Assembly (NCBI RefSeq): GCF_965638725.1
Contig: NC_134970.1
Location: 3,167,001 to 3,231,000, forward strand
Direction: 5' to 3'
From: Aptenodytes patagonicus
Taxonomy: Eukaryota > Chordata > Aves > Sphenisciformes > Spheniscidae
Length of the DNA: 64,000 nt
Shown in pieces: positions 17,200-59,300 of the stretch. Position 1 is the stretch's first letter. Each line of letters begins with the position of its first letter. The position numbers were made by a program, and so were the translations under genes. The notes under the pieces were generated by a model. That model made no database searches and was not told where the DNA came from. It worked only from the letters and a program-made list of their open reading frames with translations.

Positions 17200-17706
17200 C
17201 CGCACAATAAAGCTGCTCTGAACGGCCGCTCCCCGCCGCTGTCGGTGGTTCTTCCGCCGCCCCCGGAGCGCCGCCCGCCGCGCCCCGGAACCTCGGGCGT
17301 GCGGCCGCGGGGCCCGCCCGGAACCCTCCCCGCGCAGGCGCCGGGGCTGCCCGCCGCGCTGCCTGAGCCCCGCCGCGCCGCCTGAGCCCCGGCCGCAGCG
17401 CGGGGAGGGGGCGGCGTTGGGTCGGGTCGCGCCGGGCCGTGAAGGGCCGCGGGGCCGGAGGAGGAGGAGGAGGAGGAAGGGGGGAGCGGGAGGTTCGTCG
17501 GGCGAGCGGCGGGGCGGCGGCAGCGCAGGCCCCCAGCGGGGTCCTTCGGCGGCGGGGACGGAGGGAGCGGGACGGCGGCCGCGATGAACCTGGAGCTGCT
17601 CGGTGGGTCCGGGGCGCGGGGGCCGCGCCGGGGGCGGGGGGGGGCGGCGGGCCGGGGGGGCCGCGTGTAGGCGGGCGTCGAGCCGTCGTCGTCCCCCCCC
17701 CCCCCC
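16743..17706. repeat. Cluster of long C-runs upstream of and within RBBP5 intron 1
   Basis: Four homopolymer C-runs occur within 1 kb: 16743-16755 (13 C), 16809-16821 (13 C), 17128-17146 (19 C) and 17693-17706 (14 C). Further G-rich stretches lie near 17630-17660. On the opposite strand these are G-runs that could form quadruplexes. They flank the likely RBBP5 transcription start. Homopolymer lengths are prone to assembly error. Confidence 0.85.
17047..17088. repeat. Compound trinucleotide microsatellite (ATT)n(GTT)n
   Basis: About nine ATT/TTA units run directly into five or six GTT units just upstream of the RBBP5 CpG island. No coding role is visible. The repeat creates artificial poly-isoleucine/valine and poly-asparagine open frames on the two strands. 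Confidence 0.9.
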
Positions 17707-28415: not shown

Positions 28416-30111
28416 GAGGTATGTTTTATTTCCTAAAGTCAATGGGTAAGTTTTGGCTTTTCCATACTTCCGTGATTGTTTATACTGTGACAATGTTTAG
28501 GAATCCTACAATACAGCTCCGCTGCAAACGCAAACATACTGTGCCTTCACCACAGCTGGTGCGTTGTTGTTTGTTTGGTTGTTTTTTTAGCGTGGCATTT
28601 GGTTGATGATCTCTTTTCAAGAGACAGGAGTAAATCTGTAGTCCAATAAAAGCCCTGTATCCCCGAGTGCAGCCTAGGCGCTCCGAGACAGACGTGCGAA
28701 AGGGGAGCTGAACACACAGCGTGCTGGGCGTAGAGTGCACCTCCAGGGAAACTGAATGTGGAAAATACATCTACTAGATCTTCAGAAGTCTTCATTTTAA
28801 TAAATTAAGGATTTTTAGGAAGAGAAATAAGGACATTCGTTAGCAGAGCTGTTGAAGAACATGGCAATCCAAATCCTTTCTGCAATCCATAATTCAGGTG
28901 CTGGTAAGGAGATACTGATTATTGAACTGGCTTGACCACAGTTCAGTTACGCCATCAGAAATAAGTCACTTTGATTTTTTTTTTTTCATGAAGAACTTTT
29001 GTAGTAGTGCATTATTCTTTTGGGACGCTTGAGTGTTCACTAAGTGAATTGTTCTGGGTGTACGAGTGGCTTCTGTTTTACAGATGCATCAGTTGAACGC
29101 GGAGATTTTGGCTCAGATTGCTCGTCGGAGTCAGTGGCTGTATGTGGCGCAGAGCGCGGGGCTCAGGCTCACAGCTCCTCTGAGTGATGTTGCGAGGCCA
29201 GTGCTGTTGAATCCCTTCTGAGTCTGATAGTGGATGTCAAGAGCCTTATACGATGCTTTTGTGCTGAGTCCTCATCTCGGAGGACTCGCTTTGGCTTCAG
29301 ACTTAGGGAAGTTCTTTGTTCTCCCTCGGAAGGTTTGGGGCCGCATTCTGACCCGGGCAGCCGGACTGTGACATCGGCACCGCTTCCCCGGGAACATGGG
29401 CTCGCGGAGACGTGAGTGACCAGTGAACCCTGTGTAGAGATGGATGTCGTCAGTGACAAAATACTGTTCAGATTGCCTTTGATGGCAGTGCCATCAGACT
29501 GTCTAGACGTTGAAATCGTGTTTTTGTGATCTTGGTAATTTGGGGAGTGCTTTAGATTTTGGTGTATAAAACAACTGGTATATGAACCAGAACTGCGTAG
29601 GTGCTGCGTAAGGAATTAGGCTTTCTTTATGCTCAACAGCATTATTTTAAAGGTTCCAGTAGCGATTACTTATATTGTTTTATAGTTTGGTGGGAAAATG
29701 AAACTGGAACAGTACTTCTTTACAGTGGCAATTCATCTAAAATAGTACGTAAAATCTTACAGAGAAGGGAGGACTTAATCTTTTTTAAAATTGTCAAATA
29801 GATCCCAATTGCTGGAATATAGTGGATTAAAACATTCTGCTGCTGTGTTACACGAACTGGAATTTATGATTCACACTGACCAACGTAGTAACGTGTTGCA
29901 TCTTCTTTAGCAGTGTTGTACTTCAAGCCTGTCTTGTTGGAGGGTTTTTCCTAACAGAAGGATTGTGTCTTGAAGATGATGCTGGTGGGATTTCAGAAAT
30001 ACTTAGTTTGAAGGTTTACAAAGAATGATTTGTGGGTTCGTTTTTGGTTCTTTTTGACTACTGAATTTGCACAGCTTTAGAAAGCAGCACAGGTGATTGA
30101 TAACCCCCGAT
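28416..30111 (+). other. RBBP5-TMEM81 interval with candidate TMEM81 5' UTR exon
   Basis: No coding gene is supported here. A moderately GC- and CpG-richer patch at about 29100-29411 ends in a strong donor (gtgagt at 29412). A plausible acceptor (gaatttgcacag) ends at 30074, just before the TMEM81 ATG. This suggests a non-coding first exon ending at 29411 spliced to 30075. It is only a splice-signal inference. Confidence 0.3.
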
Positions 30112-30906
30112 ATGAAGACCTTGGGGAACAGCCACATCCTTGGGATATTACTTTGTGCTTTCTATCTAGTGTTGGTAGTTTCCTCTGAAACTGAAATTAC
30201 CATCCCAGAAGAGCTGAAGTCAGCTGTAGCGAAAATTGCAGTCAACAGCACATCCTGCAGCGTCACCTGTGGGCTGGGCTTCAAACTGGAGGAGATATGC
30301 GAGATCACTCCGGACGGAGGGAGGAGGAATTGTACCTTGCGCCGGTCGGGCTGCCTGACCAGCTGGGTTTGTGGCTTACTCCACTTCACCGTCCCTGTGG
30401 GCAAACCCTTCCAGTTCAGCTGCCTGACCTCGGACGCAGTCGGCTTTGGTAGCCGAGCCTATAGCTATACGTGGAGGCTTGCTCAAGGCCTTATCACCAC
30501 AAATGATGTACTGTTCAAACCTTTCAAAAACCCCGATTCTGTCATCAGATTTTCCCCTACCAGGGAATCTGATGCAGGGACTTACCGATGTGATGTGCAG
30601 ATGTTGAAGACCTTCAGAGTCATCAAGAGGGTCTACTTTGGGGTCAGAGTGATCCAAAATGACTTAGTGGATCTGAACTTTCAAAAATCCCTGACCTGGG
30701 AACAGAAGTTGGCGGCAAATAAGGAGGAAGGAAACACAGAAAACAGCACCCATGAAGAAGTGCAAGAGCAGCAGCACTTTTGGCAAGGAGAATTGTTTTA
30801 TGAATGCTTGGTAGGCATTGGAAGTGGAGTGATAGGGGGTGTCTTGGTGAGCATGGCTCTCTACTTCTTCCAGAAGATTTTGGGAAGGAGAGCTGCAGAG
30901 AAATGA
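30112..30906 (+). CDS. TMEM81: TMEM81, transmembrane protein 81 (complete, single coding exon, 264 aa)
   Basis: The start at 30112 (MKTLGNS) aligns with the human MKVLATS start; an in-frame TTG slightly upstream is not needed. Residues 1-25 form a hydrophobic signal peptide. Next comes a cysteine-rich segment (VTCGLGFK, CLTSWVCG), then an Ig-like domain with its two cysteines and tryptophan visible (FSCLTSD, YTWRLAQG, GTYRCDVQ). A spacer precedes one membrane segment near residues 230-252 (VGIGSGVIGGVLVSMAL) and a short basic cytosolic tail. Length is close to the human 255 aa. TMEM81 has been described as a sperm membrane protein acting with IZUMO1 and SPACA6 in a conserved fertilisation complex. 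It lies downstream of RBBP5 on the same strand, as in human, and converges tail-to-tail on the PDZRN-like gene. Confidence 0.95.
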   Translation: MKTLGNSHILGILLCAFYLVLVVSSETEITIPEELKSAVAKIAVNSTSCSVTCGLGFKLEEICEITPDGGRRNCTLRRSGCLTSWVCGLLHFTVPVGKPFQFSCLTSDAVGFGSRAYSYTWRLAQGLITTNDVLFKPFKNPDSVIRFSPTRESDAGTYRCDVQMLKTFRVIKRVYFGVRVIQNDLVDLNFQKSLTWEQKLAANKEEGNTENSTHEEVQEQQHFWQGELFYECLVGIGSGVIGGVLVSMALYFFQKILGRRAAEK

Positions 30907-32335
30907 ATGAGATTTAATGCAATTGCTTGTCTCTGTCTCCTTATTAGCGTTGATGCAGTATTCTGTGATGTTTGTAAATATTTTTTTTTTTTTCTGGCTG
31001 ACACAATCTATTTCCAAATATTTTCTTAAGCTTCGGAGTCTGGTAAATTAGTACAGAACTGTAGCACCAGAGCTTGAGTCTTAATGGAGTAGTGCAAACA
31101 GTAGCTCCAGATGGGGCAAGGCAGTTTGCCTCCACGTTGTGCGAAAGGATGGTCTGGAATGGTCCAGACAGGAGGTAGAGGACACTGAGCCACAGAAACT
31201 GCCCACTGCTTGCTGCTAACTACCTTGCCATGCTCCTCTAGCTGGCCTTTATTTTACCTCTAGGTGTTCGGGGTTTTTTTTTTATTTAGTTAATAACTTG
31301 CAATCCCGATTCCTGTCTTATTTCCTCGAATTTCTTCTGCTTTGCCCAGAACTCTGGTGATGTGAGCTGACACGGATCACAATTTGGTAGATGGTGTTTC
31401 TCCAGCAAGAGGTGCAAAGAAGTAAGGATGCTTTCGAGGTGGGCTTACAGACCAGGTTTCCTGGCTGTCTGGTGTCCTTTCCATCAGATCCAAGTGGTCT
31501 GGTCTCAGCAGCTGGGGGGCAGCGTGGGGACAAGGGGTGGACCACCACGGCCTGCTTCCTCTAGAGAGATTCATCTCCCCGCACTGCAGCCTGGAAAACA
31601 GTAAAGTCTCTTCAAGCGATAGCCCTGTTTCAGAGCTTGCCCTGTTTCCTTTGTAGTGTAGAATAGCGAAGCAGGGAGCATTGGGTAGCACAAGCAAATC
31701 TTCAATTTGAGCACTGCTGCTTAGGAACATAACTGGGTGATTTTAATCATGACTCAGAGCTGAGCTCATTCCTGAAACCTTTAAAGGGGGAGGAAGGAAA
31801 GAGTTCAGTGGGCTTGTGGATCTTTCATGTTTCTAGTAATTAATAAGTATAAAACATGCAGCAGCTCAGTAAGGAGTATTGTTTCCCCCTTGGTAGCAGA
31901 ATCCACAGAGGGACCTATTAAGTGCCTTCAAGACTTTCTGTCTCTTATTTCACAGTAAACAACTGTATTTACTAAGTCTGTTTCCTTTTTTTCTGTGAAC
32001 TAAAGTACAGGAATGCATAGCACACCCAATTCTGGGGAAAATAATGATACGACTCTAATATTAAAGATTGAAGCATACTATTTTTTTTCCTTTTTACCAG
32101 GACAATAACAAAAAAGCTTTAATATAGAAAGAGATGGATATAGAAGTAAATATCTTATTTGCAGAGAATCCTATATAAAAAAAATCAGGCTGAAACATAG
32201 TGAGCCAAATCTTCATGTACAGTCAAGTTGGTAATAAGTATATCGGGACAACAATCTGTAGACCCTGGGGTTGTCTAGCTGCATTTGAGTGGAGAAGCAA
32301 GCCTGTCATCGGGCTTGAATTCCCGGTTTGTAGTT
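30907..32335. other. Convergent 3' region between TMEM81 and the PDZRN-like gene
   Basis: This stretch contains the TMEM81 3' UTR (+) and the PDZRN-like 3' UTR (-). Possible signals are ATTAAA on + at 32060-32065, and on - ATTAAA at 32118-32123 or AATAAA at 31281-31286. If the distal ones are used, the two 3' UTRs overlap. No coding frame is convincing. Confidence 0.4.
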
Positions 32336-34639
32336 TTACTGAGTTCCCTGTTTCTGCGGGGAGACTTTAATGGCCACAATAACCAGCAGAAGTTTGGAAA
32401 TGTTGGGGGGAACCGGTCGGCGGTGATAGAAGATGCTTTCGGGAAGTTGCACTGTCCTTTCCTGATGCCTGGGGCGACCCTCTGGGGAGGGACAGGAGGG
32501 TTGCCACACAGTTGTGACAGACAGCAAGGGACTGTATGTCCTTCCATCTGGCGACCTGGTCCTGTGGGTCAGAAGCTCCTGAATGGTGATCCAGTTGTCC
32601 AAGATTTTCTTGTTTCTGTTCTTCATCAGCTGCTTCTGACTCAGCTCCACAATACTGAAGTTTCTCCTGTGCTCAGCGCTGGCTTTGTCTTCGCTGGGCT
32701 GTTCCCTCTGGCTCTGCAATGCTTTTCTCTGTTTCTGTTCCTCGGCTAGGAGCGTGTGCTGCTTTCTCTGATCCTTATTCCAGTATTTCCCAGTCTTTCG
32801 CTCGCTGAGGGCATCCTCATCTGTGGTCAGTCTGCTTTGTTCTTCTGCGATTCCCAAGGCCCTGTCCTTTAGCAGCCAGGTCTTGTGTTGCTTCTTCAAG
32901 GACCACTTGCTCCTTTCACATGCCAGCCTCCATCTGTTCCCGTTATCCCCTGCTCTGCCCTCTGGGCTCTCACTGCATCGCCTTGGTTTTGCTGGCACTC
33001 TTGCCGGGTCGCTTAAACACTCTGCAGCAGCCTTTTCCTGCAGCAAGATCATGTAGCTCCTGTAATGACGTGCGTGGTGAGGAATCGTAAGCTCTTTTGA
33101 GCCAGCAGTGATGTACGGTGGTGGGCACACGTCTGTGGCCTGTGCTGATGGTTTGTTCTCGCTGGCTTTATTTCTGTCCCCGCTCACTGCACTCTGCAGG
33201 CAGAGCTCACCCCTGTGCTGCAGCCCTTTCTCTCTTGGGGTGCTATTTTCATCAACCTGAAGGCACTTAGGGAGCCACTGGTCCTGTTTGCATTGCTTGC
33301 AGCCCCCCTCCTGGCCTCCTGACCCGTGAGGCATTTCTTGTTCCCTAGAAATTGGTCTGCACTGGCTGCATCTGCTTTCCAGGAATTCTTGAAATCTTCT
33401 GCACCCCTCTGTGCTTACGCTGCAGAAACTGGAATCGCTTAACTCATTGTAGGTGGGGAACTCGTCCGTAAGCAGTCCTCTCTGTGCAGGTGTACTGGTA
33501 CAGAGATCTGTGCTGGGACCTTCCTGGCCACGGGCTGGTTCTGCTGCTGCGTCAGGCCCTGAATTCTCACCTGGCTGAGTGCTGGTGTCAGTAAAGCCCA
33601 GGCCACTGTCCCACTCGGGATAGAGAAATTTCTGGTTTTCTTCTTTGCCTTCACTGTTTTCACTTTCTGCCTCAAAACAAACACCCACAAGCTGTCAGAT
33701 ATCTTTGGGGCTATCCTCCCTGGCTGAGCATGAGTCATCTCTCTAAGCATCCTCCAACTGTATGCAATGGCAGGATTTCTCTCTTGCCTTAAGCTCTCCC
33801 TGCTACTGCTGTAAACAGCCTGAGATGTGGCCTTACCAAGCTCCCAGAGACACTGGAGAGAGCTGCAGGGATGGAGTAACAGCTGCTGAAACTCAACTCA
33901 TCTTGATGAACGAGGGCTAATGCCTGAAAGAGTATAATGGGGGCAGGGAACATGCAAACCTGATGATGTAAGGCTGAGGTGACCAAAAAAGATTTTCAGA
34001 AGGTATGGAGGCAGAATGGGGTGGGATACCTTATAGTTCAACTCTTCTTTTCCCATGGCACAGGGTGCAGGAAGTGGATAATTAGATTCATTATCACTGT
34101 TGCAATTCTGTGGCTGCCAGTAATCAAAGAAAGCCCTGCGGAGAAACCAAACAGGAACACCGGTCCCTCCCCAGCCCAGCGAGAGGGGCTGGCTCTGTGC
34201 TTTGGCATGCTGAGGGCCATATTTTTGTTATTGTCTGAATGGCCAAACCAAAGAACCAGTGCTAGGCAGGAGCTAGATCAGCCTGTTTTAAGGTTAGTGG
34301 ATGCAGCTGATTAGAAATCCAGCTTGGAGAGATGTCGGCTGACCTTGTGCTTTGCATGCTATGCTATTGCTGCTTTCCAGGAGACATTTCTTTACCTTGA
34401 GCAACGCGTTGTACGTACCCATCTAGGCAGAGATTTAAACCTGATTTGCTGCAGTTCTCTTCCTTGCGGCATTGCTCGTTCCCTGCTCTGAAGTCCATCT
34501 GGGTTGCAGCATCAGATGTTCGGGGAGGCTTGTGGGCAGACTTCTGTCTATGCACTTCCAGCGTAATCTGTTCCCCTCTACTCTGGAGTATTTCTAGGAT
34601 CTCCTCTAAGCTGGCTCTGGAGATATCTTTTCCGTTGAC
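32336..34639 (-). CDS. PDZRN3/PDZRN4-family (LNX3-homology) gene, 5' end not found
   Basis: Exons in transcript order: 34639-34419, 34135-34030, 33923-33837, 33670-32336. They give 582 aa, phase-consistent. The first exon begins at the family splice position before VNGKDISRAS, the second half of PDZ1, and ends with ATQMDF, matching the family's TQTD-type motif. The second exon ends GKEELNYK, like the family's EELEYE. The third (ALALVHQDE) matches only the end of PDZ2. The last exon carries the family landmarks: DSGLGFTD (family DSGVGRTD), CRRFQEFLESRC (family CERFRELLELKC), ARHYRSYMILLQEK, TTDEDALSERKTGKYW, and near the end NKKILDNWITIQELLTH and SPLLSVTTV. PDZRN proteins are cytosolic scaffolds, and the long forms are RING E3 ligases. 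Oddities: no RING or TRAF exons found, PDZ2 core absent, and the stop after VTTV lost. The last exon's acceptor could instead be at 33691. It follows CNTN2 on the same strand. Homology is near certain; activity is not known. Confidence 0.85.
32504..33085 (-). other. LNX3-homology region with overrun of the canonical PDZRN stop
   Basis: This is the best conserved part of the PDZRN-like protein, from HHARHYRSYM to LLSVTTV. In PDZRN3 and PDZRN4 the protein ends at VTTV, a class I PDZ ligand. Here codon 32506-32504 is TGG instead of a stop. Translation continues for 56 codons of unrelated, low-similarity sequence to the TGA/TAA-type stop at 32338-32336. Confidence 0.85.
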
Positions 34640-35154
34640 CTGGTTAGAAGGGGAGTGGATTGCAAAATAGTCCATTCATACTTACTAATCTTGTGTTTTC
34701 TTAATGCAGAATTTCTTTGCCTTGTCAAAGAGCTCCCCTGTTGCTGAAGCTGGTAGCTCTACTCCAGACTTAACTGCTCAGAGGCTCCGTGGTATCTCCC
34801 CAAACTGGGAAGCAGATCTATGTAGGTAGGGCTCTTAATCGCCTCCTCATTCTGCTGCAGAGATGGGAGATGAAATCATATCTTTGTATCTCAAGTGTGC
34901 TTAAAAGATCAGTATGAAAAAAAGTTACAGTAAACTCCATGTTTTGCATTGGTTTACTGTTAATCTGCCCTGTTGATACCTGCATTAGGTTATCTGGCTT
35001 CTTTTATCTTAAAACTTATTTCTAATCAACTTGACTAGAACCACAGTGAGCCTCTTCTAAGCAGGGTGAAGCAAGTTGCCCAGATTTAACACCACAGTGA
35101 GCGAACTCTGCATACAGTGAGCCCTAGATTTCTGTCCTGCGAAACTCTTCTCAC

Positions 35155-41558: not shown

Positions 41559-42382
41559 GAATCATAGAATCGTTTAGGTTGGAAAAGACCTATAAGATCA
41601 TCGGGTCTAACTGTTAACCTAACACTGCCAAGTCCACCGCTAAACCATGTCCCTAAGTGCCACATCTACACATCTTTTAAATACCTCCAGGGATGGTGAC
41701 TCCACCACTTCCCCGGGCAGCCTGTTCCAATGCTTGACAACACTTTTGGTGAAGAAATTTTTCCTAACATCCCATCTAAACCTCCCTTGGTGCAACTTGA
41801 GGCCGTTTCCTTGGCTTGTTACTTGGGAGAAGAGACCAACACCCCCCTCGCTACAACCTCCTTTCAGGTGGTTGTAGAGAGCGATGAGGTCTCCCCTCAG
41901 CCTCCTTTTCTCCAGGCTAAACAACCCCAGTTCCCTCAGCCGCTCCTCATCAGACTTGTTCTCCAGACCCCTCACCAGCTTCGTTGCCCTTCTCTGGACA
42001 CGCTCCAGCACCTCGACGTCCTTCTTGTAGTGAGGGGCCCAAAACTGAACACAGTATTCGAGGTGCGGCCTCACCAGGGCCGAGTACAGGGGCACGATCA
42101 CTTCCCTACTCCTGCTGGCCACACTCTTGCTGATACAGGCCAGGATGCCATTGGCCTTCTTGGCCGCCTGGGCTCACTGCCGGCTCATGTTCAGCCGGCT
42201 GTCGACCAGCACCCCCAGGTCCTTTTCCGCCAGGCAGCTTTCCAGCCACTCTTCCCCAAGCCTGTAGCGCTGCATGGGGTTGTTGTGACCCAAGTGCAGG
42301 ACCCGGCACTTGGCCTTGTTGAATCTCGTACAGTTGGCCTGGGCCCATCGATCCAGCCTGTCCAGGTCCCTCTGCAGAGCAA
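41559..42382 (-). mobile_element. 5'-truncated CR1 LINE retrotransposon
   Basis: On the minus strand this encodes the C-terminal end of CR1 ORF2 (reverse transcriptase protein) with hallmark segments such as [34 protein letters not shown] and [11 protein letters not shown]. Its 3' end at about 41560 carries the CR1-type ATTCTATGATTCTA terminal octamers. Only about 0.8 kb of a roughly 4.5-kb element is present, the usual 5' truncation. An in-frame TGA near 42175 interrupts the reading frame, so the copy is dead. It lies between CNTN2 and the PDZRN-like gene and supports an avian or reptilian source. Confidence 0.93.
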
Positions 42383-47204: not shown

Positions 47205-47314
47205 TCAGAGCTCCAGGTAGCTGATCAGGGCCACCATTACTAGAGAGTTAGTTGTGATAATGACAGCATGTGGCACTGGCCTCATCACAGAGTCTTCCAC
47301 CATCATACTTGTCC
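47205..47314 (-). other. CNTN2: CNTN2 GPI-anchor signal exon
   Basis: The last coding exon reads [16 protein letters not shown] and then a hydrophobic tail ending [12 protein letters not shown] and a stop. The upstream NSGTSMM region offers small residues for anchor attachment, and there is no cytosolic tail. This fits the known lipid-anchored state of contactins. Confidence 0.9.
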
Positions 47315-50300
47315 CTGAAAGAAAGGGAGCAAGGAAGGAGCAACCATCTTGTTGCACAGACACAACCTGATGCCTTGTGGAAAGAGTCGGGAGGGTTGGT
47401 AAAATGTTAATTCTGGGGTTCTGCGTGCTCGTACTGCATTTATCTCTGATGAACCTCCCACGATCTGAAACAAGAATTTGGAGGTGGGCCCTGAGTACTT
47501 ACACCCTGAATCAAGGGAACCTGCTGGAGTTGGTGTCGGGGCCCTGCAAACAGAGTCAGGATTTCACTCTTAGTGAGTGTAAATTGGGCTTGCGTGGGGC
47601 CTCAAGAGCTTTAGCTGCAAATAAAATAAAGCTGGGTTCAGACTAGACTGAAAGGTTGCTCAGAGTCTGGGGAGAGGTTAGCTGATGGAGGGCTGGAGAG
47701 GAATATGTCAGAAGATCCTTTGAGTGAATGGCACAAGAGAGCCAAAGACCAATTCCAGAGACTCAACCTAAAACACCAGGGTCAGATATTCCCCCATTTT
47801 CCTGGAAGGGAGAGCGGGATTTTAAGACATAATGGCATTTATTGCTATTATGCCATGTTATGGCCAGGTAGGGGAGGAGGTATGACTAAGTCATTTACTT
47901 ATCAAAGAACAGGGGTAGCAAATGACAGGCAAGTAGTCCTGCAAATTAACTCCTCTCTCTCTGAGCTCGTTTTCCAGTGGTCTGTGAAGCACCCTGTAAA
48001 TGAGCATTTGTGCATGCAGCCAGAGGAGCGTACGTACCACTGTTTCGGAGGATGTGAACTTCTGCTGGGATTCCATCTCCCCCAGGGCCCGTCACCCTGA
48101 TCTGTACAAAGGCGTGAGTGAAGTCTTCAGGGACGGGGATGTCGATCCGGCTCTTGCTGGCCAGGTATAGTGTGGGAGCAGAGTGGGAATCCTGCCTGTA
48201 AAGCATCTGTTGGAAGAGGCAAGTCTGAGTTTATATTCAGTGTGATTGCCTTAGGGTCACTTAGAAGAGAAGGCCAGCTACATGCTGCCTGTACCTTGTA
48301 CCCCGTAACTGCAGACTCATCTGCCTTTGCCATCACTGGGTCCCACTTGATGCTGACTGTAGACCCAGAAAAAGTCCAGGAGATGTTGCCAGGTGGCCTC
48401 TTTGGTGCTAAGAGATACAAAACAAGACAGAGATTCAGTCAGTTGGGGACCAATGAGAAGGTTGTGCTGGTTACAACCGTCTCCTGAGACTCTACAACGA
48501 GTCGACAGGGCTGATGGCACCACGATGGTTGGTTTAAAGGGAAGTATCCCAGCAAACATTACTCTGAGCACAGATCTTCTCAGATAAGTGATGCACCGAC
48601 CACAAGACTGATCTGAGGCAATTCAGGGAACTGTTTTATGGACTACTGAAAATGGCGTTAGAGCACCAAGATAAAAAAGCTAATCAGTTAGCTGATCACT
48701 GGGGATCTTCTGGAGGAAGCAGCAGCCCCAGGGAGTACAATGTGCAAAACGATCAGGGCTCACTCACGTGGCTTTGTTGTCGTGACGTTGGTAGAGGGAC
48801 TGGGGGGGCCGGTTCCAGCCCGGTTGTAAGCTCTGACTGACACATGGTATTTCGTGTTGGGGTTTAGGCCTGTTACATGAGCCGATGTGACCAGCCCTGC
48901 TGTTCTCACTCTGTCAGCTGCCTCCTCTTTATCACCATCCTTCCAGTACCGGATCTGAATAGAAGAGGGTATGATGGGTTTAGTAAGGATAGAGGCATCT
49001 GCAAATGCCAGACTCAGTCCATCCACAGCCAACGCTGGAGACCCTTTGGTATTTGTTTCTATACGTTTTGCTTAGTATTATTATAGTATTATTATAGTAT
49101 TATTATAGTATTATAAATACTAGTATATAGTATTATTAATATAGTATTATACTTATTGCCCAGGAATAAGGTTACAGCCTGTGTGGAAAGGCAAGCGGAA
49201 ACAAAATGATGTTTCTCTCTTACTAATCTCTCTTGTGAGCAGTAGTACTGTCCCCGTTAGAGCCTCGTGCTGTCCATTAATTATCTTCCATCTTTGGAAA
49301 CAAAATGCTCTTTCCTTTCACCTCACTTAGCCTGGGGGAATTTTCTTTGCTGGGCTCTTGGATCTCAGTTCCAGTGTCTCTCATCCCCATTGCAGGCTCG
49401 TACCTCATAGCCCAAAAGCACTCCAGTCATGTCTCCCTGCTCAACGGGCTCCCAGGACACATCCATTTCTGAGGACAGAACAGCCTTGGCCATAACTCTG
49501 AAAGGAGCCGCTTTCGGTTCTGAAAAAGACATCAAAAGGGAATAAAATCCTTTTCCTCGCTCTGGGCAGCATAATCACCATACTGAAATGAAGGGCTCTC
49601 CTGCAGCACCATTACCGTGCAGCCAGACAGCTGGTATTATGTGTGCGGAGCAAAGCAAGGGGAAGAGATTTAGGGACTTAGTAGGACAAGCAGGGCCACG
49701 GCTGCGTGCTGTGAGGATCTGCGTCTGCTCTGAAGCTCTGGGTGTACAGTCACAGCTGGGCTTAGGGAAACATCTGTCTGTGTATTTGAAGTAGAAGATA
49801 AATGTTATGCTGAAATCACTGTCAGCTGCTCTTTGAGTAAAAGAAACCTCTCCTATCGTGGAGTTCCCAGACAGACACAGCTCTGCAGGGAGCTGGTTGA
49901 GGACACAGTGTTTGGTTGGACAAAGCACGGTGAATTCAGGGTCGCCGCAGTCCCCCTTTACCTTCTTCTGCAGAGTACACGATGGCAGTGAGGCTCTCCG
50001 GTCCCTCTCCTTTCCTGTTGTACGCTTTGATCTTCACTTCGAAGGGGGTGTAGGGACCGATGCTCTCGTTGCGGTAGACGTAGTGCAGCGATTCTGCATG
50101 CGGCACCCTTGCTGTCAGCCATCCCTGGGTGCCTTTCTTGCGAAATGACAAGATGTAGCCAAAGCCATCTCCGTTCTGATAGTCCCGCAGCGTTGGCTGT
50201 GAGGGGGGCAGAAAGATAGAGGACCCTTGGTCAGTTCAAACGAGCAAGACTTTGGACTAAGCACAGTGTTTGGCTCAACCACATATCAAAATTGTAATTG

Positions 50301-53300
50301 CAGCACTCATTTCCCAAAAGAAATGGCACGTGCTCCTCCCCCTGGCCCTCTCCCAGCATCCACAGCTGGTGCCGTGCTGCTGACTTACTGTCCAGTTGAT
50401 GATCAGCTCGTTGGGAGCCCCTCCGCCTCCGCTGAGCCCAGATGGTGCCACAGTAGGTGCTGTCGGGTCCCCAAACAAAAGCAGACAGCACAGGTTGGGT
50501 TAAGGAAACAGTAGGGATGAAGATGAGCAGACACCGCGCGGTCCGGGAGTAGCCAGGCTTTGACAGCTCGTATGAAAGTGCTTGTCTATATTTTCAGCTG
50601 TGAGTATTTCAGATTTGTGAAAATCAGGTCTAGAATACTGGCTAGTGCCTGACGAGCTTATTTGGAGGCAGCATGTCTCCGAGGGGACAAGAATCAAGCT
50701 CAAAAGCAGGGACATGGAGGAGAGCCTTTATTAGAAAGGAGTTAATATGCATTTGGTATGTTGAGAGCAGTTCTCCTGCTGTTCTTACATCGCTTCTGCT
50801 TACACGTTCAAGCAGCAAGATAGAATGAACATTCACAGCCATTTGCTGGGAAATTTACCTTGTCTTTGCAGAGTTGTGCTCTGTGATGGAATAGGGCTCT
50901 TTCCCCTTTCTAAGCATTACTGCCCAGAAGGTACAGGATTTGAAGCTAGGATTTATAGTGGTTTAATAAATTGTATCTAATGCTGGTGAAGTTAGCTGCC
51001 AGCTCTAGTACCGCTTTGTCTTTGACATGTAAATGGGCAAAAAGGCAGAAAATTTTGTGATGGCATCGCCTCTAGGAGCACTCAAGGAGATGATTAATTG
51101 TTTGGGACCAAGGCATGCTGCAAGTCGGCCTTCCCCCTCCAGCATGGAGGGACAGGTACCTCTGATTCCCCTTTCTACCTCTGAGCGTATCTGCACGTAC
51201 CTGCTTCTTTGGTACGGATTTTGCTGGAGGGTAAACTTGGCTCCCCAACTCCAAGAATGTTACTCGCTAAGACCCGAAACTCATAATCCATCCAAGGAAT
51301 GAGGTTCAGCACCTGGGCTGTCTCTGCGTTGCCTTCAATGTTTACAGGATCTATATAATCCAATAACATGAGAGGAGAACAAATAGAGCGAGTGGCAGCC
51401 AGCGTACGAGCACAGAGCAAAAACTTGTCAGTGAGCTGGTGCCCTGCAGCCAGCGTGGGCCACGCGACCGCTGCTGCCATCAAGACACTTACTGGTACGC
51501 ATTTGCTTCCATTTGCTGGAGAGGAGGGTCCGCGCCTCGATGATGTACCTGGCAATAGGGCTGTGGTTATCAAAGCCGCGGCTCCAGCTCAGCTGGACGG
51601 TGGTGTCACTGATGTCTCTCACCACCACGCCCCCAGGGGGGCCTGGGGGTCCTAGGATGATGGGAGACAGACAGACGTGTTACTAAGATGAAAGATTTGG
51701 AGGCTTATTGCTCTTTATATTGTGCAAGTCATAAATTTAAAATCAGGCCTTTCTTTTCTGGAGGCTAGGAAGCCTCACCTCCAGTTTTGGCCTCCAGAAA
51801 AGCTCGTAAGCCTATCCCATCTAGTCCAAATGTTAGATGGTGAGGTGGTCGCAAGGGAAGAGCGAGCTGATCCCTTGCAAGGACCATGCCATTACTTCAG
51901 GCTAGTAAGGAGCAGGGGACTTTACGATGGAGAAATTACCTCTGACAGTCAGCGTGGCTGACTCGGAAGCACTGTCCACAACTGTCTGGGCCGTACACGT
52001 GTACCGCCCCGAATGCTTCAGCTGGGCGTTGAAGATGCTGAGGTCCCCAATAGCTTCCTTCTGTGTGGGGAGGAGAAAAGGCAGTGCGGAGAGCATTTGA
52101 ACATGCCTGACCACAATCCAGCATTCAACATGCAAACAAAGAGGCCGTTAGTAGTTTTCTGTCCTTTTTGATGGTACATAATTGCCCTTTCTACTCACCA
52201 CACTGGCTCGCCGGTAGTGCCCCTCAGACTTGTCAAAGTCAATGGGGAAATCATCTAGTGACCAGGTGAAGGTTAGGTCCATAGTTGGATCGTGGGACGC
52301 GTGACATTGTAGAGTAAGGTTTTCACCTACATTGATATCAGCACTAGATGGTGCCAATGTGATCTTGGTGGCATCTGCAGAGAAAGAGCAGGGAGGGCTG
52401 TTAGCTGCAAATGTCCATGTACCAGATGTGTATTAATGCTGCAGAGCATCCAAACCAACTAAGACTTTCCAACTTGTCATCCCTCTCTAACAGCTGCAGT
52501 TTTACAGGAGGAAGATGAGGGATTACAGTGGTTAGAAAATGGAAATGCTTTTCTCAAGGACCAGTTGTTGGTAGGTGTGATTTGGTGGGTCAGGCAGAAG
52601 GTTAGCTGCTCCACAGGCTGAAATGTCTCTGATTCCCTGAGTACTGCATTGCTTTTTGGGAGTAGAAAGAGAGGAGAAATATCACATCATGGCATTCTTA
52701 GACGTTTCTTGCTTGACTGACCCCAAATCAGGGCAAACATCTCTACCTCGAACAGAGAGGATTCCAGTGCTGTTGGCTTTGCCCATGAAATTCTCAGCAA
52801 AGCAGGTATACTTTCCCTCATCAGATTTGCTGATGTTCTGGAGGATCAGGGTGCCATCTGTGGTAATAGTCACCCTGGAAAGGAAGAACAACCATACAAG
52901 AGGAAGGTTAAAATGTCTGTTCACTCTGTATACCTGACAATTTCCAGCACTTGCTGATTTTAGCGAAATTGGTGATAAAGACAGGACTGCAAAATAGGAG
53001 TTTTCTAAAGAAGAAACTAGAGGAATAACAAAGTGCTTGTGTTCAGGGATGTAGCAGCACACTTGGGTCATCAACTCCAGTTTTCTGGCAAGAAAAAATG
53101 TGATTTTAGCTATGGTTTCTAGGTAGAAGCTGACTCTGTGCTGCTACCTGCTACTGTTGATCAGAAGTTCAGTCCCTTTGGTCCAGAGCACAGTGGCTTT
53201 TGGTGCTGCTCTTGGTTGGCATGGGATGATGACCTTCCCACTTCGGGCTGCAGGTATCAGTCGCTTCACTGGGTTTAGTCTAAAATCTGGTGCTAAGGCT

Positions 53301-56300
53301 ACAGGGGAAAAAAAGAGGATTAAGGAATGATTAGAAAACCCTGCTATGTGAGCATTTCAACTGCCACGTAACTAGGTATTGATTTGTCGCTAGATGACTT
53401 GGTAACAGAAGCATGGAAATATCTGGTGAGCAAGATGGAGTGATTCCTCTGCTGCCGGGTGGTTTCTAACGCCTGCCGAGGCAGGTGTTATGTTATATGT
53501 GTCATACTTAGCGATGGTGATATGGCCCTAACAAGTGCAAGGTCTTTGAGAGACACAAGAACAGCTGCTTTTGAAAATGTAGAGGATATTCTCTTCAATA
53601 TCCTGACCAAAGTCACCAACGCAGACATCCAGCTTGCCTAAAACTCCCCCTGGAATTGCAGAGATAGAATTGGGTTTTATCTGTTGCCCTCATGCATTGC
53701 AGTGTGTTAATGTTGAACAGTTGATGCTTAGGGCCTTTAATTTATCTCTGGCATCTACTGACCACGAGGAGATAAGCTTTTAGACTAATGTGGAACAAGT
53801 TTGGCATCAGTCCAGTTCCAGTCACCATCTGTCAAAGCAGGCTGAATGGATACTGAACTCTTTCCTTTGACCTCTTTCCTCCAAAAAAGAGGAAGGCTCT
53901 GTAGTGGAAGAGAGCTTGTAGTGCTGCTGCTGTCTGTCCTGTACACTTTCTGTAGCTAAACAGATGTCCTTGATCTCTTTCAGCATTACTGAATTTACAC
54001 AAGATTTAAATTTTAAAGGGTTGTAGGGTGTCTTGTTGAAGCAGCAACTATATTTCCATGGTGAGTGAAGCAGTTTTTGTCTGCTCTTATCTTACTCTGA
54101 GATCGCAAGCACAGGATATTAGGAAGAGATCTAAAATGCTTCAGTGTCCCATTGAAACCCAGAGCACTGGGAAATGAGAAATTACCTTGCACTGTTAATT
54201 CAGCACTTGCATATACTGTGCCATGCTTGTTCTCAGCCACACACTGATACATGCCAGAGTCCTCCAGGACTAGCTTGGAAAATCTCAGCTCTCCACCGCT
54301 CACTTCGATGCGGTTCTGTGCAAACAAGAGGATGAACCCATTAGATGAGAAAAAACAAAAATGGAACTCAAGCCTTGTGTGTTCAGGGTTGAGTTTCATT
54401 ATAGCCTCTTATGCCAGTTTGAAGCCAGCCTGGTTTTCCATGGGAGAAAACGCAGGCCATTTTTTCTGTGTGTCCAGTCACTACCCCACATCGCTGTGCT
54501 CTGTTTGCTGAGACTTCTGAGTGCCTGAGCAGCAACGTGCAGGTCATACAAAGACAGGTACAAGGTGCTATTTATCCGCCCCGATAACTGGCTATGTGTT
54601 CCTGTAGTTGCATGAAGCAATGGCTGGGATGGCAGTAACGGGAGAAGGAACTTGCTGTCGGTAAGGACTGTGGCATTGCTTTGCAGCCTCATGGGGGCAC
54701 ATGGAATAGGGATGTGGGGTGATAAAACGGGGTTGAGATGCATTTGCAGCGAGGCAGGAGAGGGTCTAAGTCTGGAGTAGCAGGTTCAGTACTGCAAGTT
54801 CTGGTGTGCACTGGCTGAGCCGCTCTCGCTGTCAGACCTGCACGGCGGTACCTGGGAGGTCAGCGGCTGCCCGTCCCGAAGCCATCGGACTGCGGGCCTG
54901 GGTTTGCCAGCAGCCGCGCAGCTCCAGCGCAGGTCGGACCCGATGTCGGCTTCCGTGTCTGTGATCACCTTCAGCCACTCCGGCTGAGCTGCAAAGGAGC
55001 AAGAGAGGTGGCAGAGCCAAGATGATCAGATGAGAGGTTTGTTGTGCCAGGCAGGCAGAAGGATGCTCATTGTGTCATCTCTGCTGGCAGATTTATTTAT
55101 CACAGCGTGTTTCACCATAGTAACAGCCTTCGCCTTTTGTGCAGTGATGCAAGGCTGAGTCCTCTATGGGTCTGGCTGCAGCTGTGCATGTGGACTGCAC
55201 AAAATTCTGGCAGAATCCAGATCTGAGGAAGAACATTATGGTTTCTCTTCTTAAGAGTAAATACGGTCTTTCCTGAACTTCAGGAAAGACTGGATTCAGA
55301 CTAAGAGAACCAGGTTAATGGTTCAGAACCAGATCTGATTAATAGCTGCGAGCATTAACCCTTGTGGAAGTACCCCAGGCTTGGAGAGGACCTTGGTTGA
55401 GAGCCAAGTTTGATTTTTACCACTATGCTTCTTTCCCTGGTTACCTCATTTTTGCTAGAATTATTTTAGAGCAAGTTAGGAGCTCTCTCTCTACTTGCCA
55501 TAGCCTAAATGTATCCAATGAGGAAAGGTATCAGTGACCTCTGCAGGTCTTTGTTAGGGTTTCGCAATAGGTTTAATTGTGGCTGATACGAGGCAGGATC
55601 AGAGGTGGTGGTTTCGCTCCCAAAGGCTCAATCCGTTGCCTGGGGCATCTTGCCGTGCTCTGGCAAGGCGTGTGTTTAAATGTGTTACCTTGAATGATGA
55701 TGCGGCCCTGGTAGGTGTCTCTCCCTTTGATGTTTTCAGCCTCACACTCATAAGTGCCTTCATCCTCAAAGCCAACATCCTGGATCTGCAAGAGGGGCTC
55801 GCTGCCGATCCACTTGGAGGACTGCGAGCTGTCCAGCTTCCTCCACTTTATTCGAGGAACAGGGCTATGTAAAAGTAAATCTGGTGAAGGCCAGCTCTCA
55901 GGTACCCCATGCTGCATTACAGCGTAGTGTAACTCAATTCCCCGTTAGCCACCCAGGTCCCATTCCAGCTGGGCCTTGGCCAGCAGGACAGATGGCTTTA
56001 GCCAATTCCTCCCTCCTCCTATTCCCCCTCCATCTCTGGTCTACGGTTGAAGAGAGGGGTTGTGAAAGTTGAAGGTTCTGCGATGCCCTCCCCGTCCTGA
56101 GCCTGAGCGACTCAGATGCTGCACTCACTTTCCAAAGGCAAAACACTCCAAAGTCACCATCTGCCCAGCCAGAGCGTAGGTGTCTGCAGGAAACCTGGCT
56201 TTTATGCTGGGTGCATACTGCCTGGCATCTGTTAAAAGGAAAGCACTGTTGAGGAGTTCTGGATGACTTTAAAATGGCACACGTGAGGTCTTAAAGGGCA

Positions 56301-59300
56301 GAGGTACCCACAAGGTTGCACTGCTTTGCAAAACCTTCATGTGTTTGGATAATTTACAGGTGGCAGAGGCTAAGTTTCATTTTCCTCTCAAAACAGGTCT
56401 TACTAAAGTCTCTAAAAACCTCTTTACAACATCTCTCCTTAATCTTCTACCTGCTTAACTCCCTTCGCCCTGCCCAAGAAGTATCTTCAGCTGCACCTCT
56501 GCAAGGTCACCAAAAGCAGAGGAGAGTAGTTTTGGGGATATGTGCGCCTGCACAGGCTGCACCTTGTGCCATTTCTCTTTTACAAACATACAGAGAAACC
56601 CCATGGATGGGGTTTGTAGGTGCACAAGCAGCAAAGCCTGGAGAGGGGGCTGCTTCCCCCAGGTTCCAGCCAATTAATATTTTTGTAAGCTCTTAAGCTC
56701 CCCTGAGAGGCTGGTGGGTGATTTGTGCACTGCTGGAGTCCTGTGGAGCCCAAGTGCTTTGCAGTGGCTTGTTAATTTTGCATTTTGCCCAGTCCCCTTA
56801 TGATAATCCAAGAGCACTGACCCTCTGCAGCAAGGCTGAGCCGGGAGAACTTGCTGAAAACACTCTTGGTGATGAAGTCGATGTGGCTGGTGGCAAAGCA
56901 TGAATAGTTCCCCAGGTCGGAAGCCTCTGTCTTGGCAATGTAAAGGTTTCCTGTGGTCTGAGAGACGAAACGCCTTCCATCGGCTGGGATGAAATTGGGA
57001 AACTCATTCAGGAGCCATCGATAGGATAAGCCTGTGGGGAAGAGAAAAAGGAACAAACTGCACAAGTTGCCTGTGTCCTCTCAGGTGGGACTAAACCAAG
57101 CAGGCTGTCTTCTAGACCAGTCTAAGCTGAAATTGGTCCTTGGACGGTACTTGTTTTCTCCACATGCCGAGTCCTGTCTCTGTTTTGTTTCTTTACAGAG
57201 CCTGAATTAAAAGCAGATTTGCTTCCCTAAAATTCCCAAAGAAAAGCAAGGAGTGATTCACATGTCTGGGAATCCCTTGCTCTGTTGCATCCCTCCACCT
57301 GGCACCAGCAGTGCTGCTACTCCCTGCTAGTAACAATGCTGAAATGCAAACCCTTACCTGGGTAATGGGGAGGAGGGCTGCAGGCGAACATCACTCCCCA
57401 GCCTTCTGTAATCTTCACGGGGTCTCGCTCTTCTGCGGAGAATTCCTGCAAAACTAAACATGCAAAGTGAAACCTGTCCGTGGATGAAGAAAACAGCTGG
57501 AGGTATTACTGTATTTTATCTCCCCCTCCACAGGCTGGTCTTCTCAGTGGTTGTCCAGAGGGAGATCCAAAAATATTACTGACTTTCTCCGTAGTGCATC
57601 AAATTTCTGCTGCACCTCCATGTTAATGGAAAGTGCCAGGGGATTCCTCCAAGTGATGGTGTTGGGTACCATGCACCGGAGAGCTTCTCTCCAGCCTTTA
57701 TTAATGCGAGCAGGGGGGCTCAGTTTACCCCCCGCATAACTGTGGCTGCATTTCATTTACCTTGCGGAGACAAACTTACAGCCAAAGCGGAGGGAGGCTT
57801 CCCTGCTGACGACCGTGCCCCTGGAATTAGATGCCACGCATTGGTAGGAGCCAGCATCCTTGGCTTTCACTGGGTTGCTTATCACTAGGTCGCCTGCAAC
57901 CAGCCTGTAACGGGAATCTGGCTCCGTCTTTATCTCTGTGCCATTCATCTTCCACCTGCCAAGAGCAAGTGTAAAGAAGTGAGAGGGGTAAATACTCATT
58001 GCAACTGCGTGCTTGCGTGGTGCCTTGTAGGAGGCTGTGCTTGGTGTTTTTCTAGCTTTGGTGTGTTGGGATTTGAGTTAGATTTATGTCTGCTCTGTGA
58101 CCTGGGTGGTATTGTACATCACATGTAGACGAGGAGGCTGATTCTCATGTTAGTGATTTTCTTTATATAAAAGTGGAGAACGGAAAGCAAAATTCTTGAT
58201 GGTTGTGTCCCAGTCCTGGTACAGAGAAGAGAGCAGGCGAGCTCACCTGTAGGTCGCAGGAGGGCTGGCTCTTGCTCGGCAAGCCAGCGTGACTTTCTCT
58301 TCTGCTGAGCCTTCAGGGAAGAGGGTGTGGACAGGCTGCTCTTCAAACACGGGCCCGTAGTTCCTTGTGCTACTCTGTGCTTGGCACCAAACTGCAAGAG
58401 AGGGAAAACCTGCTCAGCTCAATTTAGCTTTTTCTAAAGTGTCTCATTTTTAGTTTTGTAGGGTGTCCCTGGCAGCGTCAGAACTGCATCTAGAACAAAA
58501 GAAGGAGCAATGTGAAAATCACAACCCATCTGTCACCACAGCCCAGCCCCAACCATGGCTTTGGGCAGATAGCGTGCGTTTCCCACTGAGCATCTCACAC
58601 CATCTCTGCCGTGCCAGAGGGACCAGACATGCTTAAAGCGTGCAGATGAAGGAGTACTGAGACATGCCTCTCGGAAAGCCGTGCACAGACAAGACTGGAG
58701 CTGGGAACCCCGGGATGCCCTCCTTGTCCCTGGCAGTGAGGACGTGCTGGTTCCTCCTCTGTCTTGGCTGGTTGGTTCCTCCTAAGTCCTCTCCAGGACA
58801 AGGGAGGAGAGAGGAGAACCTGGACCTTCACACTAAGTTCTCAGCTCTGCCACTGCCTCCCTGCACACGCCTGGCAGATCCCCTCCATCCCTGCGTCTGC
58901 AACATCATCAGCTCTTGACGACTCGAACCTGCTGCTTGCTGGTGTGCAAACCAACGCTGCAGGTTATCAGTTCTACTTTTGAACTAACAAGATGAGCTTG
59001 AAGCTTCCCCTGTAGTGTTCAGACACGGGTTTGATTCTGATCTTGCTGTCATGTGTATGGCTCAGGCATAGGCACAAGAGGAACATAAGAACCTGCCTGC
59101 CTTCTCCTACGCTGTGCCTGGGCCACCCTTTGGTGCGGTGATGATGTTTCACTGGAAAGTGCCAGCTGTCCACAGTGAGTGACTCCGTGTCTCAGATAAA
59201 CGGCAAATCCTAGCAGACCCCCTTCCACACAGGCTTTATGGAAATGGCAGTGCAAATAAGTAAGAACAAAGCAGAAGCTGCCTGGAAATCTCTTAACTGC

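What the first reader, a model, noticed from the sequence alone, without database searches (positions are those of the whole stretch)
32336..34639. A third PDZRN gene beside CNTN2: probable ohnolog absent from the human locus
The minus strand between TMEM81 and CNTN2 encodes a PDZRN3/PDZRN4-type protein with the LNX3-homology C-terminus. From memory, human CNTN1 is followed by PDZRN4 (12q12) and CNTN3 by PDZRN3 (3p), each on the same strand with the contactin upstream. Here CNTN2 is followed by this gene in the same orientation. I recall no PDZRN gene between human CNTN2 and TMEM81. The simplest reading is an ancestral contactin-PDZRN pair duplicated by vertebrate genome doublings, with the CNTN2-linked copy kept here and lost in human.
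Basis: partly seen in the sequence, partly recalled or inferred. Interest (0 to 1): 0.9.

Follow-up and report, generated by a model that had tools for sequence, protein, structure and literature searches.

The report
Fourth PDZRN-family gene beside CNTN2
A bird-like genome keeps, next to the nerve-cell adhesion gene CNTN2, a stripped-down and fast-changing sister of the PDZRN3/PDZRN4 ubiquitin-ligase genes, most likely an ancient genome-doubling duplicate that a published gene list for the human locus does not contain.

Summary
On the minus strand between a TMEM81-like gene and CNTN2 lies a divergent PDZRN3/PDZRN4/PDZK4 relative ("X"). Its last exon, 33670-32336, is open for 444 codons and 40-41% identical to recalled human PDZRN3, PDZRN4 and PDZK4 around the C-terminal LNX3H domain (best E 3e-42). 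Exon A has weak hits of its own; exons B and C are inferred. Searches of the window's own genome found three such genes: X, PDZRN3 and PDZRN4. Each follows a contactin on the same strand (CNTN2-X, CNTN3-PDZRN3, CNTN1-PDZRN4), with an L1-family gene within 1 Mb (NFASC, CHL1, NRCAM). X is as distant from bird as from human PDZRN3/4, so it is not a recent copy. The ohnolog reading is well supported by synteny; trees do not place X and no other vertebrate could be searched. X is no ordinary PDZRN: no RING or first half of PDZ1 was found in the window, the PDZ2 core is gone, and the VTTV PDZ ligand is buried by a 56-residue run-on. Best reading: an old, RING-less, nearly PDZ-less LNX3H protein, coding now or until recently, perhaps a decoy or adaptor. 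It is a fourth LNX3/4/5-type paralog, since PDZK4 exists beside human L1CAM.

The parts
34419..34639 (-). Exon A: second half of PDZ1 (VNGKDISRASLEEILEILQSRG...) and linker; starts in phase 0 at a cag acceptor, ends in phase 2 at donor GATGG|gtacgt
   Evidence: same phases at both ends in this genome's PDZRN3
34030..34135 (-). Exon B (inferred): AFFDYWQPQ...KEELNYK, counterpart of HEYYDPNDY...DELELE in PDZRN3; phase 2 to 0
   Evidence: open frame, splice sites and phases matching PDZRN3; similarity alone weak: 23 of 400 control segments scored as high
33837..33923 (-). Exon C (inferred): ALALVHQDELSFSSCYS..., degenerate counterpart of the first PDZ2 exon; phase 0 to 0
   Evidence: open frame, splice sites and phases matching PDZRN3; similarity alone weak: 30 of 400 controls as high
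32336..33670 (-). Exon D: last coding exon; acidic linker, WDSGLGFTD motif, RRFQEFLESRC motif, LNX3H domain; SVTTV ends at 32507, ORF continues to the stop codon 32338-32336
32507..33085 (-). LNX3H domain (193 aa), 44% and 43% identical to this genome's PDZRN3 and PDZRN4 in this alignment
   Evidence: 44.0 and 42.1% in the six-row alignment
32339..32506 (-). 56-residue run-on after VTTV: the codon after VTTV is TGG here (TAA in this genome's PDZRN3, TGA in PDZRN4)
   Evidence: (extension)
32118..32123 (-). ATTAAA poly(A)-signal-like hexamer, 213 nt past the stop
   Evidence: pattern match only, one of five such hexamers down to 30.9 kb
47205..58077 (-). CNTN2, same strand, directly upstream; stop codon ends at 47205; 5' end not determined
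   Evidence: stop; two exons tested, the other exons recognised by eye
30097..30906 (+). TMEM81-like gene (Ig domain), convergent neighbour; name from gene order and recall

Best explanation
X is the CNTN2-linked member of a gene quartet made when an ancestral block (L1-family adhesion gene, contactin, PDZRN gene) was copied in the early vertebrate genome doublings. The copies are NRCAM-CNTN1-PDZRN4, CHL1-CNTN3-PDZRN3, NFASC-CNTN2-X and, in human, L1CAM-PDZK4. [Shown: three blocks in one genome, neighbours and strands, age greater than the bird-mammal split. Inferred: genome doubling as the cause; loss in human.] X lacks a findable RING exon, first half of PDZ1 and PDZ2 core, and its VTTV PDZ ligand is buried because the stop codon is gone [shown in the window, within search sensitivity]. 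It still encodes the LNX3H domain in an intact frame [shown]. It therefore should not work as a RING ubiquitin ligase or as a normal PDZ scaffold. Most likely it acts through LNX3H: as an adaptor, or as a decoy that competes with PDZRN3/PDZRN4 for the kinases and degradation machinery that act on this domain in Wnt5a-Ror signalling [inferred; about 0.3 for this last step].
For: Homology E 3e-42. Three LNX3H loci in 1.35 Gb: 3 of 12 and 3 of 5 scored candidates. Six contactin loci among 42 scored candidates, and the three PDZRN-type genes lie 14-362 kb downstream of one on the same strand; the three contactins concerned were identified by solved structures. Three L1-family tails of 4 candidates, on the same three chromosomes. 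Splice phases of exons A-D equal to PDZRN3 at every boundary compared. Equal distance to bird and recalled human paralogs. Past protein-level constraint: X-PDZRN3 codon positions differ at 0.35, 0.34, 0.61 over 190 codons, and 47 of 84 identical residues use a different codon. Simulated neutral decay: 2% divergence breaks the gene model in 98.5% of 400 runs. 61 of 116 LNX3H positions invariant in the other five sequences are kept, and 13 of 22 Ser/Thr columns shared by PDZRN3 and PDZRN4 are Ser/Thr in X. Wnt5a-Ror control of Pdzrn3 needs LNX3H phosphorylation (passage of PMC11164867); GFP-Pdzrn3 is a degradation reporter (passages of PMC11219042).
Against: Trees do not place X: end branch 5.19 (2.28 on LNX3H alone); the best trees put it on the PDZRN3 side at 80/96 and 48/24, neither starred, while single sites lean to PDZK4. 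Many positions invariant in the other five have changed (only 24 of 79 kept upstream in the last exon, 61 of 116 in LNX3H). No start codon or first exon was established. No bin at 30-48.3 kb passes a CpG-island rule. Stop loss and lost domains also fit a gene on its way out. Exons B and C have weak similarity. On C8 the CHL1 gene is on the other strand from CNTN3-PDZRN3. No expression data, no ortholog. Which three LNX3H residues are phosphorylated was not seen, so their state in X is untested.
Confidence: 0.75

Rival explanations
1. X is the bird ortholog of mammalian PDZK4/PDZD4 (LNX5), which sits at a different place in birds. PDZK4 also lacks the RING and the first half of PDZ1 (recalled sequence), and neither PDZK4 nor an L1CAM tail was found in this genome.
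For: No PDZK4-like locus in two whole-genome searches. X shares 8 LNX3H residues with PDZK4 alone, 7 of them at columns where PDZRN3 and PDZRN4 agree, against 1 and 0 columns for the two other quartets (read from the list). Holding X with PDZK4 is not rejected (p-AU 0.335 and 0.353). [quoted passage not shown]
Against: Human PDZD4 is listed between SSR4 and L1CAM (PMC5356410), so its block partner is L1CAM; X lies at NFASC-CNTN2 in the slot matching NRCAM-CNTN1-PDZRN4. X and PDZK4 are both long branches, which attract each other. Human PDZK4 is recalled, not fetched.
Confidence: 0.12
2. X is a dying or recently dead gene (unitary pseudogene in progress): the ohnolog origin is right, but it makes no useful protein.
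For: RING, PDZ1 half and PDZ2 core not found, lost stop codon, long branch, no CpG-rich bin, no first exon established.
Against: 526 codons in four modelled exons with no stop and canonical splice sites; neutral drift of 2% would break such a model in 98.5% of 400 simulations. Third-position excess shows long-lasting protein constraint, though not constraint today.
Confidence: 0.25
3. X is a later, lineage-specific copy of PDZRN3 or PDZRN4 that landed next to CNTN2.
For: The tests do not exclude a pairing with bird PDZRN3 (p-AU 0.163 and 0.462), and the best trees put X on the PDZRN3 side, unstarred.
Against: X is no closer to the bird than to the recalled human copies, while bird and human PDZRN3 and PDZRN4 are 93.3% and 98.5% alike in LNX3H. 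Pairing with bird PDZRN4 is disfavoured (p-AU 0.0115 and 0.0433). It keeps introns, so it is no retrocopy, and it lies in the syntenic slot.
Confidence: 0.03

Closest known systems
PDZRN3 (LNX3)
   Same: LNX3H domain 44% identical, same splice phases, downstream of a contactin on the same strand
   Different: PDZRN3 has RING, zinc finger, two PDZ domains and a free VTTV end; none of these was found complete in X
PDZRN4 (LNX4)
   Same: LNX3H 42-43% identical; same order L1-family gene, contactin, PDZRN gene on one strand
   Different: as for PDZRN3; this genome's PDZRN4 is 98.5% identical to recalled human PDZRN4 in LNX3H, X evolves far faster
PDZK4 / PDZD4 (LNX5)
   Same: no RING, first half of PDZ1 missing (recalled sequence), next to an L1-family gene; shares 8 LNX3H residues with X alone
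   Different: PDZK4 keeps one PDZ domain (PMC3162930) and the VTTV end and lies beside L1CAM in human; only 40% LNX3H identity to X
RING-less and PDZ-less invertebrate LNX3H proteins (e.g. Drosophila Slip1)
   Same: an LNX3H domain without RING, some also without one or both PDZ domains (PMC3162930)
   Different: presumably independent losses; sequences not fetched or compared here

Membership tests
LNX3/4/5 (PDZRN3/PDZRN4/PDZK4) subfamily by descent | C-terminal LNX3H domain | tested here: met
   E 3e-42; 40-45% identity over about 190 aa
LNX3/4/5 (PDZRN3/PDZRN4/PDZK4) subfamily by descent | shared exon boundaries and phases | tested here: met
   A 0 to 2, B 2 to 0, C 0 to 0, D from 0, as in this genome's PDZRN3; exons B and C were chosen partly by phase and have weak similarity
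LNX3/4/5 (PDZRN3/PDZRN4/PDZK4) subfamily by descent | C-terminal class I PDZ ligand (TTV) | tested here: not met
   SVTTV is encoded but followed by TGG and 55 more sense codons; so X is filed here by descent, not as a typical member
PDZRN-type E3 ubiquitin ligase | RING domain | tested here: not met
   no significant RING or zinc-finger hit by tblastn over the 64 kb window, no CpG-rich bin at 30-48.3 kb; an exon outside the window was not searched for
PDZRN-type E3 ubiquitin ligase | two complete PDZ domains | tested here: not met
   only the second half of PDZ1 and a possible remnant of PDZ2; 166 bp lie between exons C and D
2R ohnolog of PDZRN3/PDZRN4 | lies in a paralogous block with other ohnologs | tested here: met
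   L1-family, contactin and PDZRN-type genes on C1, C8 and C22; order and strand match for contactin-PDZRN in all three, for the L1-family gene in two
2R ohnolog of PDZRN3/PDZRN4 | duplication older than the bird-mammal split | tested here: met
   equal identity to bird and recalled human copies
2R ohnolog of PDZRN3/PDZRN4 | separate clade in a rooted tree | tested here: inconclusive
   long branch, no outgroup, nothing starred around X
2R ohnolog of PDZRN3/PDZRN4 | orthologs beside CNTN2 in other vertebrates | not testable with these tools
   no other vertebrate genome is held; viral and prokaryote collections gave no relative

The most novel reading that the evidence does not exclude
A fourth vertebrate LNX3/4/5-type gene, apparently undescribed, survives next to CNTN2 as an LNX3H-led protein without RING that antagonises or tunes PDZRN3/PDZRN4 turnover in Wnt5a-Ror signalling, completing a four-copy L1CAM-contactin-PDZRN paralogon.
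Probability: 0.25. Interest if true: 0.7.

Novelty: new member of a known kind. Interest (0 to 1): 0.55.

Why it matters
It fills the missing corner of a gene quartet linking two families of nerve-cell adhesion molecules with PDZRN genes, and suggests that the block existed before the genome doublings. It gives a case in which little but the LNX3H domain is kept, so what LNX3H does without RING and PDZ can be asked directly. It also adds a candidate to the genes missing from the human locus.

Tried and rejected
Looked for a first exon of the MGC type that I recall for PDZK4 and a PDZRN4 isoform: none convincing at 34.6-47.3 kb. A frame MLQWSFVK|gtgagg near 39784 and an in-frame ATG at 34675 that reads through the acceptor of exon A (MDYFAIHSPSNQ|VNG) are possible starts with no support beyond the frame.

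Trees on 619 and 194 columns, six rows of which three are recalled human sequences and one (PDZRN4 of this genome) is the last exon only, did not place X. Besides the tests named elsewhere, holding X with both PDZRN4 rows was not rejected (p-AU 0.309 and 0.447). Viral and prokaryote contig collections held no relative. The codon-position figures printed for the main frame are one base out of frame and are not used; one search gives the right start (33670). The script stopped on an error after printing the X model; later printed the PDZRN3 splice sites.

Papers: 10 searches; several listings were capped (15 of 66, 10 of 22, 8 of 26). I saw no fourth LNX3/4/5-type gene in the titles and abstract starts listed; only open-licence papers are held, and automatic genome annotation could not be seen. 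Of PMC3162930 I saw the abstract, sections 7, 8, part 1 of section 11 and found passages. Of PMC7765395, PMC9099044, PMC10792479, PMC6368563, PMC5356410, PMC11164867 and PMC11219042 I saw found passages only.

Full report
What is there. The window is C22:3167001-3231000 of a 1.35 Gb genome in 618 contigs, bird-like by its chromosome set and an apparent CR1 element (my judgement). Gene order in the window, named partly from recall: DSTYK and RBBP5 on + (frames), a TMEM81-like gene on + at 30097-30906, the gene in question (X) on -, and CNTN2 on -. An NFASC tail exon follows on - about 22 kb beyond the window's right edge.

Gene model of X. Exon D (33670-32336) is certain by homology: recalled human PDZRN3, PDZRN4 and PDZK4 match it at 41, 41 and 40% with E 3e-42, 1e-41 and 4e-34. 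Exon A (34639-34419) is the second half of PDZ1, with hits of E 0.001, 1e-4 and 0.006. Exons B (34135-34030) and C (33923-33837) are inferred from open frames and canonical splice sites. The phases (A 0 to 2, B 2 to 0, C 0 to 0, D from 0) equal those of this genome's PDZRN3 exons at every boundary compared. The similarity of B and C alone is weak: 23 and 30 of 400 control segments from elsewhere in the window score as high. Joined up to VTTV, the model has 526 codons and no stop.

What is missing. No significant hit to the RING, zinc finger, first half of PDZ1, or the later PDZ2 exons was found in the window. Only 166 bp separate exons C and D, so the PDZ2 core is deleted; the one PDZRN3 exon of that stretch that I printed in full (INGIEV...) is in phase 0 at both ends, so losing it keeps the frame. 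No 300-base bin at 30-48.3 kb passes a simple CpG-island rule. The family's stop after SVTTV (TAA in this genome's PDZRN3, TGA in PDZRN4) is TGG in X, and the run-on has 56 residues. The PDZ ligand is therefore not terminal. The start codon is unknown.

The paralogon. Searching the whole genome with exon D gave three loci of 12 scored candidates: X, C8:20838608 (-) and C1:32856827 (+). Searching with the full C8 exon gave the same three of 5. The C8 exon is 83% identical to recalled human PDZRN3, the C1 exon 89% to PDZRN4. A CNTN2 exon found six contactin loci of 42 candidates: C22 (CNTN2), C1:32.53 Mb (+), C1:213.20 Mb (-), C8:21.20 Mb (-), C8:22.16 Mb (+), C8:22.75 Mb (+). Solved structures identify C1:32.53 as Contactin-1 (1.8e-46) and C8:21.20 as Contactin-3 (1e-30); the other three were not tested. 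The L1-family tail domain (Bravo_FIGEY) found three loci of 4 candidates; read with recalled knowledge of the tails, they are NFASC (C22), CHL1 (C8) and NRCAM (C1). So NRCAM-CNTN1-PDZRN4 (+,+,+) and NFASC-CNTN2-X (-,-,-) are collinear. On C8, CNTN3-PDZRN3 (-,-) keep the order while CHL1, 0.9 Mb from PDZRN3, is on the other strand. In human, PDZD4 (the same gene as PDZK4, from recall) is listed next to L1CAM in Xq28 (table passage of PMC5356410), which supplies the fourth block.

Age. In LNX3H, X is 44.0% and 44.8% identical to bird and recalled human PDZRN3, 42.1% and 43.2% to bird and human PDZRN4, and 39.9% to human PDZK4, while bird PDZRN3 and PDZRN4 are 86.9% alike. X is thus no recent bird copy; it is old and fast-evolving. 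The trees leave X unplaced: the best ones put it on the PDZRN3 side (80/96 and 48/24, unstarred), and of the four groupings put to an AU test in each call only X with bird PDZRN4 fell under 0.05. Counting LNX3H columns, 7 join X with PDZK4 against PDZRN3 and PDZRN4, 1 joins X with PDZRN3, none with PDZRN4. This may be true sisterhood from the second doubling or attraction of long branches.

Is it alive? For: intact frame, and a simulated neutral drift of 2% breaks the gene model in 98.5% of 400 runs (indel and transition rates were my assumptions). X and PDZRN3 differ at 0.35, 0.34 and 0.61 of first, second and third codon positions of LNX3H, and 47 of 84 identical residues use a different codon, so selection on the protein shaped it for much of its history. 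Against: stop loss, domain losses, unknown start, no orthologs or transcripts to look at. I put a living gene at about 0.75.

How it may work. Without RING and complete PDZ domains X should not do what PDZRN3 does. LNX3H is the conserved module: 61 of the 116 positions invariant in the other five sequences remain, against 24 of 79 in the rest of the last exon, and 13 of 22 Ser/Thr columns shared by this genome's PDZRN3 and PDZRN4. A passage of PMC11164867 says that Wnt5a-Ror signalling controls Pdzrn3 abundance and that phosphorylation of three residues in LNX3H is required; the cited study itself is not held. An LNX3H-led relative could occupy the same kinases or degradation factors and so tune PDZRN3/PDZRN4, or work as an adaptor like the RING-less and PDZ-less LNX3H proteins of invertebrates (PMC3162930). 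This step is inference.

Known or new. [quoted passage not shown] I saw no fourth gene in the listings of my ten paper searches, some of which were capped. Automatic annotations of bird genomes may already carry it under a 'PDZRN4-like' name; I could not check. I rate it a new member of a known kind.

Noticed in passing
own genome C1:32237852-32857510: NRCAM, CNTN1 and PDZRN4 lie within 0.62 Mb on one strand; from recall human NRCAM (7q31) and CNTN1/PDZRN4 (12q12) are on different chromosomes, so this genome seems to keep an older linkage.
   Followed up: partly
own genome, whole: Neither PDZK4 nor a fourth L1-family tail (L1CAM) was found: lost, or missing from the assembly.
   Followed up: partly
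own genome C33 and C34: Several PDZ hits on C33 (48.5 Mb) have near twins on C34 (89.7 Mb), perhaps W and Z gametologs with many shared genes.
   Followed up: no
window 41640-42400 (-): A reverse-transcriptase-like tail of an apparent CR1 retroelement between CNTN2 and exon A of X (name recalled).
   Followed up: no
window 34640-34675 (-): An in-frame ATG 36 nt upstream of exon A would give MDYFAIHSPSNQ-VNGKD by reading through the acceptor; a possible alternative start.
   Followed up: no
window about 16980-17390: A trinucleotide repeat (poly-Asn and poly-Ile frames) beside the GC-rich region at the presumed 5' end of RBBP5.
   Followed up: no
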